Of a stretch of DNA of 36,431 nucleotides, positions 33,399 to 35,994 are shown piece by piece. Position numbers and translations under genes: made by a program. Source of the DNA: a virus; the IMG/VR virus record IMGVR_UViG_3300036466_000081, positions 1 to 36,431 of that record. One strand, written 5' to 3'. Position 1 is the stretch's first letter. Each line of letters starts with the position of its first letter. The notes beneath the pieces were generated by a model. The model saw only the letters and a list, made by a program, of their open reading frames with translations, was not told where the DNA came from and did not search any database.

Positions 33399-34079
33399 TT
33401 ACTTAAATTTTTCATCCAAGCTGGCTTTTAATTCGGCTCGCTTGGCATCGACTGGGTTAGTAAATTTTTGCTGTGAACCTTTGGCACCACCATTTGGATC
33501 ACGATTCCCGCCAGCCCCGCCGCCGGAAGCTGCATCCGCTTTCATCAGATGCGAAATAGCTGGATGATTGCCCATCCACTTTTTAAACTCTGCTGGGTCT
33601 GTTGTGATAACGTTGCCAGCAAAATCTGTGAACTGTGTCTTAACGTCTGTGCCGTCGAACTCTGTTTTAACCAATTGCGCTACTAGGTCGAGCGATTCAG
33701 TGTTGATGAAGTCGCCCGAGAACGAGCCAAGAATCGCTTTCTTGCTCTCTCCTGTTACTTTGGCTGTCAACGCTTCAAGCTTGGCATTAAGCCCGCCGCG
33801 CTCTTTTTCAAACTCACTGCGGAGGCTTTCTTCGAATTTATCAAGCTCGCCTGCTTTCTTAGATGCTTCCTGCTCTGCTTTCAATCGCGCTTCTTCGGCT
33901 TCTTTGGCCTTTGCCGCCGTCTGTTTCTTTTCAGTCAGCAGCGCATCACGCGAATCTTTCAGCCCTTTAAGTGCAGCATCCAGCTCTTCTTGAGTATAGG
34001 TTTTTGGCGCTTCACCGCCGCCACCTTCGCCGCCTTCTGGATTCACTTCTTCTTGCAATCGGTATTTCAGTTTGAACAT
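33399..34079 (-). CDS. Scaffolding protein
   Basis: The 226-aa protein has an acidic Gly-rich start (LQEEVNPEGGEGGGGEA), a long Lys/Glu/Ala coiled coil (about 30-115) and a basic, Gly-rich C-terminus (GGAGGNRDPNGGAKGSQQKF) ending in a helix, the standard layout of phage scaffolds that bind capsid protein by their C-terminal helix. It precedes the major capsid gene and starts after GGGGCT at 34079, behind the late promoter at 34128-34155. Confidence 0.87.
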   Translation of the reverse strand: MFKLKYRLQEEVNPEGGEGGGGEAPKTYTQEELDAALKGLKDSRDALLTEKKQTAAKAKEAEEARLKAEQEASKKAGELDKFEESLRSEFEKERGGLNAKLEALTAKVTGESKKAILGSFSGDFINTESLDLVAQLVKTEFDGTDVKTQFTDFAGNVITTDPAEFKKWMGNHPAISHLMKADAASGGGAGGNRDPNGGAKGSQQKFTNPVDAKRAELKASLDEKFK

Positions 34080-34115: not shown

Positions 34116-34127
34116 TGAATATAAGTC

Positions 34128-34155
34128 ATTCAAATGTTATGCCATGTGGTGTCAA
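34128..34155 (-). promoter_or_regulatory. Probable late head-gene promoter
   Basis: TTGACA (34155-34150) and TTGAAT (34133-34128) with a 16-nt spacer precede the scaffold gene on the minus strand. The -10 match is 4 of 6. The terminator at 34167-34189 lies just upstream, so the head genes need their own start here. Confidence 0.6.
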
Positions 34156-34166
34156 TTTGCAACAAT

Positions 34167-34189
34167 AAAAAAGCCGCTTGATGCGGCTT
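34167..34189 (-). terminator. Rho-independent terminator of the RNA/tRNA unit
   Basis: On the minus strand AAGCCGC (34189-34183) and GCGGCTT (34177-34171) form a 7-bp stem with a 5-nt loop followed by six Ts. It lies 8 nt past the tRNA CCA end and closes the transcript that begins at about 34672. Confidence 0.92.
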
Positions 34190-34196
34190 AGTGGTT

Positions 34197-34273
34197 TGGC
34201 GCTCCATGAAGGACTTGAACCCTCAACCTAGGCGGTAGAAACACCTTGCGCTATCCTGTTGCGCTAATGGAGC
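34197..34273 (-). tRNA. tRNA-Arg (anticodon UCU)
   Basis: The 77-nt gene folds as a canonical cloverleaf: acceptor GCTCCAT / ATGGAGC, discriminator G and an encoded CCA; D stem GCGC/GCGC with loop AACAGGATA; anticodon stem AGGTG/CGCCT (one G-U) with loop TTTCTAC, anticodon UCU; 5-nt variable loop; T stem GAGGG/CCTTC with loop TTCAAGT. It decodes AGA (and AGG by wobble), codons often rare in enterobacterial hosts. It is expressed with the upstream structured RNA and ends at the terminator 8 nt further on. Confidence 0.95.
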
Positions 34274-34279
34274 GTATTT

Positions 34280-34672
34280 GTTTTAGTGCCTTCGCCACGC
34301 TTCACAACGTTGCTAAGCTTGCAGTCTATGGCCTGACTGCTGCCCTATCTTTCCAGAGTCAAGACGGAATCACCTCCATTCGGCTGTGTTACCGTTATAT
34401 GTGTACGCAAGCGTCCATAATTGACCCAACGTTGCGCGCCCTAGTCCCAAGCAAACACATTAAGATGATGACTATGACATATTTACACAGGATGCCACCA
34501 CCTATCAAATCACCATCTTAAAATTCCCCACAGATTACGCACTGTGGGCTGCGGTGTGTTGGCAGGCGCTGAACCCCTGCATCATGTAACGACCACATGC
34601 TACCGAGATAGCGGCCAGTCATGTTTTAGCTATCGACCACGTATTAGCGTATCAGCCTACGCATTCAACACA
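34280..34672 (-). ncRNA. Structured non-coding RNA co-transcribed with the tRNA
   Basis: Transcription from the promoter at 34679-34706 should begin near 34672, at the first base of helix P1. On the minus strand a five-helix cloverleaf-like fold is visible: P1 34666-34672/34555-34561 (TGTGTTG/CAACACA), P2 34658-34662/34647-34651, P3 34629-34634/34607-34612, P4 34595-34599/34583-34587, P5 34576-34580/34562-34566. P5 abuts P1 as a T arm does. Further downstream: 34542-34548/34527-34533 (7 bp), a 12-bp helix 34510-34521/34460-34471, 34335-34340/34321-34326, and paired CAACGTTG at 34427-34434 and 34305-34312. No convincing minus-strand ORF. It differs from a normal tRNA. Confidence 0.6.
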
Positions 34673-34678
34673 AAACAA

Positions 34679-34706
34679 ATCCTAGCACACCTATTTATCT
34701 GGTCAA
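34679..34706 (-). promoter_or_regulatory. Promoter of the structured RNA and tRNA
   Basis: On the minus strand TTGACC (34706-34701) is followed after 16 nt by TAGGAT (34684-34679), with the AT-rich ATTTATTTTTATG upstream seen at other promoters here. No TTGATAA operator arm is present, so it may be constitutive. Confidence 0.75.
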
Positions 34707-34718
34707 CATAAAAATAAA

Positions 34719-35753
34719 TCAATTCCGCAAATAACTAGCAACTCTTTTATCAGCCTCGGCCATTTCTTCGATTGTCAGCGGCCTCCCTAGATTGTCTACA
34801 GACAGCTTTCTAAATTCTTCGGCATCAAGGCCGGAATTGCGGAATATCAACCCTTTTGTTTTCCCCAGAACCTCATCTTGATATGCCGCTGGCTGCCGCT
34901 TAAGCCAACCGTAGTAAGTTGTGTCTGCCGTTACCTGGCCGTCAGCGCTTGCTCTGGTTGCGCCCTGGTCGAATATGTCAAACTCTGGGGATAGTTTTGG
35001 CGCAGTTGTGGAGCGGCAATTGTAATGCGCTGGCGGCTTAGGCTGGTCGCGGTCTTTGAATAAATAAACCTGCCCGTCACGACTGCGGCAAATGTCGCTT
35101 GTACGGCTATCAAGCGTTGAAACCCAAGTGTAACCAATAACCACGTCGTCATTTTCTTGATACGTGGCAAATCGCGCTTCATTGGCCAAGTGCATTACCA
35201 ATGTGCGACCGTTTGCCATGGCGTTACGCTGCGATATGTCAGCAAGTCCACCGGCACCAACGACCTGTTTTATGATTTGTCTTGTTGTTAGCCCTTCGAC
35301 AAATCCAGACTTCACGCCCATCACCAGGCGCGAAACCTCATCATCGCCCCATGAATCAATTAGCGCATCAAAATCAATCGGGCTAGTTGCCAATTTTAGC
35401 GGCTCAAACTTTGCGGCCGTCCAAACCTGGTTAACTGTTGGTGTTACCAAATCAACGCCAATCCAGCCGCCGATAGTGTCGGCTTGATAACGTGCCTCAT
35501 ACCTGGCGAACTCGCGCAATTGCTTGATTAATTCCTTGCGATACTCTCCAGCAGGAACATCAAGGTCTTTTGCTAACTTCTCAATGAGCTTTTGCAGCCT
35601 GGCAGATGTGCGCTTTTCGCTGTCAAACCCAGCAACAGATTTGCGCACAATGGCCTTCATCGCGTCCAAGTGTGGCTTTACTGTGTTGCCCACTTCGGCG
35701 CCGTGTTTAACAGTGCTGATATGGTGCGCTAGTAGTTCGTCATTTAGTGGCAT
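34719..35753 (-). CDS. MuF-like phage head morphogenesis protein
   Basis: The 344-aa protein matches the Mu gpF-like (PF04233) pattern: helical N-terminus (ELLAHHISTVKHGAEVGNTV, AIVRKSVAGFDSEKRTSARL), then the C-terminal MuF core with GYTWVSTLDSRTSDICRSRDG and PAHYNCRSTTAP (the D-x-R...C...H-x-N-C-R-S motif near 210-265). MuF proteins are minor head proteins injected with DNA or joined to the portal. I choose ATG 35753 with AAGGGGG nine bases upstream; the upstream TTG start lies in the previous gene, with a 14-nt overlap remaining. Confidence 0.88.
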   Translation of the reverse strand: MPLNDELLAHHISTVKHGAEVGNTVKPHLDAMKAIVRKSVAGFDSEKRTSARLQKLIEKLAKDLDVPAGEYRKELIKQLREFARYEARYQADTIGGWIGVDLVTPTVNQVWTAAKFEPLKLATSPIDFDALIDSWGDDEVSRLVMGVKSGFVEGLTTRQIIKQVVGAGGLADISQRNAMANGRTLVMHLANEARFATYQENDDVVIGYTWVSTLDSRTSDICRSRDGQVYLFKDRDQPKPPAHYNCRSTTAPKLSPEFDIFDQGATRASADGQVTADTTYYGWLKRQPAAYQDEVLGKTKGLIFRNSGLDAEEFRKLSVDNLGRPLTIEEMAEADKRVASYLRN

Positions 35754-35994
35754 TCCCGCAACCCCCTTCATCACTTGGTCTGCCAATCATCAAATAGGCT
35801 TTCTTGGCCTGCTTGGTTCCTTTAATTACTTTAGTTGTGTGCTTTTCGTGGTGCCACACACAATACTCGATTTCTGGCGCAATCTGCTCAATCGTGTCAC
35901 TAAGCTTGCGCATCTGCATCAACTGCATGACTGAAACGAACACCAGTGCCACGATTGCCGCCATGAATAGCGTTCTGAATAGTTCGTTAGTCAT
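35740..35994 (-). CDS. Hypothetical 84-aa membrane-anchored protein
   Basis: Started at ATG 35994 (MTNELFRTLFMAAIVALVFV), which overlaps the upstream stop (ATGA). A single membrane segment near residues 8-24 is followed by a soluble domain (QMRKLSDTIEQIAPEIEYCV, then WHHEKHTTKVIKGTKQAKKA). The HH and Cys-containing tail is Gly/Cys-rich at its end (EGGCGN). It lies in front of the MuF gene; role unknown, perhaps an envelope-acting accessory. Confidence 0.62.
   Translation of the reverse strand: MTNELFRTLFMAAIVALVFVSVMQLMQMRKLSDTIEQIAPEIEYCVWHHEKHTTKVIKGTKQAKKAYLMIGRPSDEGGCGNATK

What the first reader, a model, noticed from the sequence alone, without database searches (positions are those of the whole stretch)
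34280..34706. About 390 nt of structured non-coding RNA beside a phage tRNA-Arg
The sequence shows a promoter (34679-34706), a predicted start near 34672 at the first base of a 7-bp closing helix, a five-helix cloverleaf-like fold with a T-arm-like hairpin abutting the closing helix, a 12-bp helix further on, then tRNA-Arg and a terminator. One pair in the 12-bp helix is G-U on the minus strand but would be A-C on the plus strand, so the transcribed strand is clear. Known large phage RNAs such as GOLLD and ROOL also sit next to tRNAs; this one is shorter than those as I recall. It could be a new family, a decayed tRNA array, or an RNA that acts in infection. The evidence is pairing in one sequence, so covariation is still needed.
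Basis: partly seen in the sequence, partly recalled or inferred. Interest (0 to 1): 0.88.

Follow-up and report, generated by a model that had tools for sequence, protein, structure and literature searches.

The report
Modular phage RNA beside tRNA genes
The gap holds a real structured RNA gene, one of an uncatalogued family in phages (several infecting the marine bacterium Shewanella): a conserved end with an unusually strong ribosome-binding sequence, carrying exchangeable parts, some of them tRNA-like; its job is unknown, but it may dock on ribosomes during infection.

Summary
The non-coding RNA is real, but not for the reason first given. The five-helix cloverleaf (34672-34555) occurs only in this phage and a near-identical contig, and folds no better than shuffles. 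What holds up is the rest. The same gap in relatives, and intergenic gaps before tRNAs in unrelated Shewanella phages (3/49, 1/4, ZP9, 1.076.O), hold an RNA with a conserved 3' core at 34377-34285: a Shine-Dalgarno-like element (GGAGGUGAU), then two hairpins with compensatory base changes (covariation score 0.363 against 0.195 in shuffles, 0 of 500). Upstream come exchangeable modules. The SD-like element is stronger than at all 37 gene starts tested in this window. No Rfam family matches. It resembles GOLLD (conserved 3' part, variable 5' part, next to tRNAs) without being one. Most likely it is an infection-stage RNA that docks on ribosomes. The family is well supported; the function is inferred.

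The parts
34679..34706 (-). promoter-like site (TTGACC-16-TAGGAT, extended -10); predicted start about 34672
   Evidence: relatives 3/49, L006-L009 and L061 have a strong promoter-like sequence at the same place (sequence); no transcript data
34555..34672 (-). 5' variable module: 7-bp closing helix (34672-34666 with 34561-34555), T-arm-like hairpin 34580-34562
   Evidence: z -0.27; only in window and L003; no covariation test possible
34527..34548 (-). hairpin CCCACAG-UGCGUAAU-CUGUGGG (loop UGCGNARU shared with L222, L001, L008, L061, L063)
   Evidence: z -3.06; arms differ and still pair in relatives: CCCAC/GUGGG, CUAAC/GUUAG, CCAAC/GUUGG (sequence); shuffle test weak, 1609/20000 with 4 arm pairs
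34462..34519 (-). P1: 12-bp helix (34519-34508 with 34473-34462); contains GGUGAUU/AGUCAUC, the acceptor stem of the tRNA-like module in L222
   Evidence: z -3.0; a 9-18 bp helix at this place in the 13 members tested; L222 module = Rfam tRNA 35.1 bits
34399..34460 (-). P2: AUGUGU/ACACAU closing helix with inner module GGGACUAGG..GGGUC..GGACGC (also in Shewanella phage 1/4, L004, L222)
   Evidence: tRNA-like modules fill P2 in L236 and L239
34381..34394 (-). P3: small hairpin just before the SD-like element (arms differ between members)
   Evidence: arms picked by hand, so only suggestive
34369..34377 (-). SD-like element GGAGGUGAU, complementary to the 3' end of 16S rRNA (AUCACCUCC)
   Evidence: -16.9 kcal/mol; stronger than all 37 gene starts tested in the window, best -14.4
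34343..34362 (-). UUGAC element with hairpin CUCUG-GAAAGA-UAGGG
   Evidence: sequence; same element in L004, L005, ZP9 and, upstream, in the 3/49 group
34321..34340 (-). hp1: GCAGUC-AGGCCAUA-GACUGC
   Evidence: compensatory change to GCAAUC/GAUUGC in L004; covariation
34297..34310 (-). hp2: ACGUU-GUGA-AGCGU (GNRA loop)
   Evidence: ACGUU/AACGU, ACGCU/AGCGU, ACGUC/GACGU, ACAUU/AAUGU in relatives
34197..34273 (-). tRNA-Arg (anticodon tct)
34171..34189 (-). intrinsic terminator

Best explanation
This is a phage gene for a structured non-coding RNA of about 390 nt, made with the tRNA as one unit that has its own promoter and terminator. It belongs to an uncatalogued family in phages, several of which infect Shewanella. 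The family has a fixed 3' core (SD-like element, hairpin hp1, GNRA-capped hairpin hp2) that runs into tRNAs or a terminator, and a 5' part of exchangeable helical modules, some of them derived from tRNAs. Most likely mechanism (inferred): the over-strong SD-like element binds the 3' end of 16S rRNA and docks the RNA on 30S subunits or ribosomes during infection, while the modules carry changing cargo or act as tRNA-like decoys. Shown by computation: family, conserved core, covariation, SD-like strength, tRNA-like modules. Inferred: transcription, ribosome docking, purpose.
For: Relatives: same locus in L001 and L003-L009; other phage types 1/4, 1/40 and ZP9, and Vibrio phage 1.076.O, host Shewanella, found afterwards and matched by the model at E = 2e-7. 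Covariation on a MAFFT alignment not fitted to structure: score 0.363 vs 0.195 +/- 0.027, 0 of 500 shuffles; slid controls at most 0.114; 8 of 11 pairs with changes on both sides. A model built without window-type sequences finds the window core at the right place, E = 0.0055 in 36 kb, and ranks true members above the first false hit. P1 helix of 9-18 bp in the 13 members tested. tRNA-like T-arm plus 7-bp acceptor in 4 of 18 bodies, 0.01 expected; one passes Rfam's tRNA threshold. The SD-like element is the best anti-SD site in 16 of 18 members and stronger than all 37 gene starts tested. An ARAGORN tRNA follows closely in 12 of 19 listed members, a tRNA-like element in 2 more.
Against: No transcript data. 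SD-like elements usually serve translation, and an AUG, UUG or CUG follows at 3-8 nt in 17 of 19 members, so a short leader frame remains possible. L001 and L006 have weak SD-like sites. The 5' modules turn over so fast that no single function for them is evident. The window itself matches the model built from the 3/49 group only modestly (23.5 bits).
Confidence: 0.45

Rival explanations
1. Anti-defence or decoy chassis: the conserved core only makes and stabilises the RNA; the swapped modules, several tRNA-like without a usable anticodon arm, are the working part and soak up host tRNA-targeting enzymes or defence nucleases.
For: Modules are replaced between phages whose MuF proteins are 91-96% identical while the core is kept (window, L004, L005); tRNA-like modules in L222, L037, L236, L239; phage tRNAs lie next door.
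Against: Many modules (L005-L009, L061, L251, L253) show no tRNA likeness; no partner or defence system is known; does not explain the strong SD-like element.
Confidence: 0.2
2. Leader or minigene: the SD-like element plus NUG start a very short frame whose translation controls stability, termination or processing of the downstream tRNA transcript.
For: Strong SD-like element, NUG at 3-8 nt in 17 of 19, short frames such as LTLER, MPATRL, LTPEQMVQPKR.
Against: Peptides are unrelated between groups and 4 to 29 residues long; phage 1/4 and L006 have CUC; several members have no tRNA downstream; hp1 and hp2 follow closely with compensatory changes.
Confidence: 0.2
3. Decayed tRNA array and recombination debris without function.
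For: tRNA remnants in several modules; fast turnover; tRNA regions are recombination hot spots (general knowledge).
Against: Core conserved in unrelated phages with compensatory changes; paired P1 helices of changing sequence; SD-like element kept.
Confidence: 0.08
4. An RNA cage or oligomer like GOLLD and ROOL, built from the conserved core.
For: Same plan: conserved 3' part, variable 5' part, tRNAs nearby or inside; GOLLD binds ribosomes in pull-downs (PMC12286853).
Against: No match to any Rfam family; core is only about 95 nt; members are shorter than most GOLLD.
Confidence: 0.06
5. A protein-coding gene on either strand.
For: A 91-aa plus-strand ORF lies at 34246-34521.
Against: It is broken by in-frame stops in L004, L005 and L222; no minus-strand ORF of 40 aa or more.
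Confidence: 0.01

Closest known systems
GOLLD RNA (Rfam; PMC12286853)
   Same: phage and prophage RNA near tRNAs; conserved 3' region and less conserved 5' region; tRNAs sometimes inside; ribosome binding reported for GOLLD and suggested here by the SD-like element
   Different: no Rfam match; about 390 nt here against often over 800 nt; core is a simple SD-like element plus two hairpins; tRNA-like modules instead of tRNAs
ROOL RNA
   Same: phage RNA near tRNA islands, function unknown
   Different: no Rfam match; shorter than the 659-nt ROOL env-120; in PMC12286853 the conserved-3'/variable-5' split is given for GOLLD, unlike ROOL
T4 RNA C and RNA D
   Same: phage RNAs of unknown function, late in infection (PMC9697503); encoded in the T4 tRNA gene cluster (own knowledge)
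   Different: sequence relation not tested; T4 RNAs are much shorter (own knowledge)
tRNA (RF00005) and tRNA pseudogenes
   Same: some modules keep a 7-bp acceptor stem and T-arm; the L222 module passes the tRNA threshold
   Different: the modules read here lack an evident anticodon arm that could decode, and some are enclosed in longer clamp helices; the core is not tRNA-derived as far as seen

Membership tests
GOLLD | match to the Rfam covariance model | tested here: not met
   no GOLLD match in the window up to E 5, nor in 10 relatives up to E 3
GOLLD | conserved 3' region, variable 5' region, next to tRNAs | tested here: met
   the GOLLD description is from PMC12286853
GOLLD | closed 14-mer nanocage | not testable with these tools
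   needs purified RNA
ROOL | match to the Rfam covariance model | tested here: not met
tRNA (upstream module of the window) | tRNA model or ARAGORN call at 34672-34462 | tested here: not met
   only 34197-34273 is called
tRNA (module of L222 at the place of the window's 12-bp helix) | tRNA model above the gathering score | tested here: met
   35.1 bits, cut-off 29; ARAGORN does not call it
tmRNA | ARAGORN or Rfam tmRNA call | tested here: not met
known Rfam family of any kind | match above the gathering score outside the tRNA | tested here: not met
T4 RNA C and D | sequence or structure similarity | not tested
   no direct comparison made

The most novel reading that the evidence does not exclude
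A new class of phage RNA: a ribosome-docking chassis (over-strong SD-like element plus two-hairpin core) that carries exchangeable tRNA-derived modules into the host's translation machinery or against its tRNA-directed defences, swapped like cassettes between unrelated phages.
Probability: 0.25. Interest if true: 0.88.

Novelty: new variant of a known kind. Interest (0 to 1): 0.7.

Why it matters
Large structured phage RNAs beside tRNAs have no known function. This family adds one with a strong testable clue, near-perfect complementarity to the 3' end of 16S rRNA. It also occurs in cultured Shewanella phages (3/49, 1/4, 1/40, 1.076.O, ZP9), so transcription, ribosome binding and deletion can be tested in the laboratory. 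The cassette-like exchange of tRNA-like modules in a fixed RNA frame has, as far as I know, not been described for phages.

Tried and rejected
The cloverleaf as the main evidence: rejected, it is not conserved and folds no better than shuffles. Whole-region folding energy: uninformative (z -1.55). Direct blastn of the window gap against cultured phages finds only tRNAs in the rows listed, so homology had to go through relatives. ORFs: rejected. Group I intron, tmRNA, riboswitch: no Rfam match. A search of 369 genomes in the class of a hit MAG found nothing, but with strict filters, no positive control and no Shewanella guaranteed, it proves little. Plasmids: no match with the ZP9 core. The hand-picked-arm shuffle test is biased towards pairing because I chose the arms; I rely instead. 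L071-L073 and Pseudoalteromonas phage TW1 share the SD-like element (and, in L071-L073, the UUGAC hairpin) but do not match the core model, so I left them out. Several pattern scans returned mostly chance matches.

Full report
WHAT IS THERE. On the minus strand the gap between the MuF head-morphogenesis gene (34719-35786) and the scaffold gene (33399-34079) holds no ORF of 40 aa or more. It contains a promoter-like site at 34706-34679, tRNA-Arg(tct) at 34273-34197 and a terminator at 34189-34171. A further promoter-like site follows at 34145-34118, so RNA plus tRNA look like a self-contained unit inserted in the head-gene region. Rfam finds only the tRNA.

The 7-bp closing helix, the hairpin beside it and the 12-bp helix exist. 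The cloverleaf as a whole folds no better than shuffled sequence (z -0.27, 73 of 200), while the 12-bp helix (z -3.0) and the CCCACAG/CUGUGGG hairpin (z -3.06) do. The cloverleaf is found only here and in L003. L004, whose MuF protein is 96% identical, lacks it; L005 (91%) has another module. The 12-bp helix has two G-U pairs, both indicating the minus strand.

RELATIVES. The same MuF gap in Shewanella phage 3/49 (L001) and in seven viral contigs carries related RNA. Pattern scans and blastn then found it in phage types with other genomes and at other places: Shewanella phages 1/4 and 1/40 (133-139 kb, next to an annotated 'pseudo tRNA' and tRNA-Gly), ZP9 (before tRNA-Gly), part of it in 1/41, and further contigs L037, L061, L068, L222, L236, L238/L239, L251, L253/L259. 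Vibrio phage 1.076.O, whose host is Shewanella, came from a later blastn with the 5' part of L251; the core model, built without it, then matched it at E = 2e-7, just before tRNA-Trp.

THE CORE. The shared 3' core is: SD-like element; 3-8 nt; in the window group a UUGAC element with a GAAAGA-loop hairpin; hp1, with GGCYAU in the loop of most members; a linker; hp2, usually ACGYU-GUGA-ARCGU; a short tail; then a tRNA, a tRNA-like element or a terminator. In the window it spans 34377-34285. On a MAFFT alignment not fitted to any structure, 16 sequences give a covariation score of 0.363 against 0.195 +/- 0.027 in shuffles (0 of 500), at most 0.114 when the partners are slid, and 25 compensatory cells against 10.3. 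Window and L004 differ by a full G-C to A-U exchange in hp1 and by U-G to U-A in hp2. 1.076.O adds ACAUU/AAUGU in hp2. A model trained only on the 3/49-type group (nine sequences) ranks ZP9, L006, 1/4, L004, L005 and the window above the first false hit in 436 kb and gives the window E = 0.0055 in its own 36 kb.

THE 5' PART. It is made of exchangeable pieces in two recurring clamps. P1 lies just before the anchor AAUGUG: a 9-18 bp helix is present in the 13 members tested, with changing sequence (the automatic anchor failed for L068, where AAGGUGUUUG/CAAACGCCUU pairs by eye). Individually the P1 helices of L222, L006 and L037 are not significant in that test; most others are. The window's 12-bp helix is P1. 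In L222 the same stem (GGUGAUU/AGUCACC; window GGUGAUU/AGUCAUC) closes a module that Rfam's tRNA model accepts at 35.1 bits although ARAGORN does not call it; its anticodon arm is replaced by a GAAA-capped stem. ZP9 carries GGUGAUU/AAUCACC downstream (sequence). P2 (AUGUG.../...CACAU) holds the window's GGGACUAGG...GGGUC...GGACGC module, shared with phage 1/4, L004 and L222, or tRNA-like modules in L236 and L239. Perfect T-arms joined to 7-bp acceptor stems occur inside 4 of 18 RNA bodies; shuffles give 0.01.

THE SD-LIKE ELEMENT. It pairs with the 3' end of 16S rRNA at -15 to -20 kcal/mol in 16 of 18 members and is the best such site of the RNA in all 16. In the window, -16.9 kcal/mol beats all 37 gene starts tested (best -14.4, median -6.2). 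Its letters vary (GGAGGUGAU, GGGGUGGUC, GGAUGGUGAU) while complementarity stays. An AUG, UUG or CUG follows within 3-8 nt in 17 of 19, but the frames are short and unrelated, and the plus-strand ORF is broken in relatives.

HOW IT LIKELY WORKS. Shown by computation: a conserved, covarying RNA core; modular tRNA-like inserts; a very strong anti-SD match; tRNA neighbours in most members. Inferred: it is transcribed with the tRNAs in infection and docks on 30S subunits through the SD-like element. Whether that serves host shut-off, recruits ribosomes to phage transcripts, or brings tRNA-like decoys to translation is open. My split: ribosome docking 0.45, decoy or anti-defence 0.2, leader or minigene 0.2, debris 0.08, cage 0.06.

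COMPARISON WITH KNOWN RNAs. GOLLD is nearest in plan: phage RNA near tRNA islands, conserved 3' part, variable 5' part, tRNAs sometimes in the linker, ribosomes bound in pull-downs (PMC12286853). The Rfam model does not match, and the RNA is shorter, so it is not filed as GOLLD. T4 RNA C and D are also phage RNAs of unknown function, made late (PMC9697503); sequence relation was not tested.

LIMITS. About 19 distinct members, many from uncultured phages; several are related to each other, so the shuffle counts are not strict probabilities. No expression data. The search of host genomes lacked a positive control.

Noticed in passing
L222:10456-10539 (-); L280:1001-1082; L279:1001-1062; L283:1001-1052; L282:1001-1059: A second uncatalogued RNA element (UGAC hairpin with GGAAAGAC, then CCGUUAUGAG, a hairpin whose stem changes in step by eye, and CUUGAAAA) is shared, in whole or part, by L222, Pseudomonas phage M1 (about 170 nt before tRNA-Pro/Asn/Thr), Vibrio phages PWH3a-P1 and VnaP, and Salmonella phage MS2 LVA, with a match in one E. 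coli chromosome; no Rfam hit.
   Followed up: partly
L084:1370-2420; L071, L072, L073: Pseudoalteromonas phage TW1 and three contigs carry another RNA-like gap with an SD-like element (and, in L071-L073, UUGAC-GGAAAGAC hairpins); TW1's lies between holin and major tail genes. The core model does not match it.
   Followed up: partly
L082:1711-1832; L066:2535-2635: Shewanella phages 1/4 and ZP9 enclose different tRNA-like elements in the same clamp helix (AAAUAUUAU.../...AUAAUAUUU) just before tRNA-Gly; in 1/4 it is annotated as a pseudo tRNA.
   Followed up: partly
L004:5440-5540; L239, about 90-180 nt after the SD-like element (-): tRNA-like elements with an unusual long D domain (UUAGyUUGAGUGGAG...UUCUAGAG...AAGCAGGCAAA) directly after the RNA core; not called by ARAGORN.
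   Followed up: no
window 34118-34189 (-): The terminator after tRNA-Arg is followed at once by a promoter-like site before the scaffold gene; 3/49 shows the same order, so the RNA-tRNA unit appears insulated inside the head-gene region.
   Followed up: no
L236:780-860 and 950-1040: L236 seems to hold a partial second copy of the P2 anchor (CUUUAACAAUAUGAUAUACGAAA) upstream of the first, as if the module had been duplicated.
   Followed up: no
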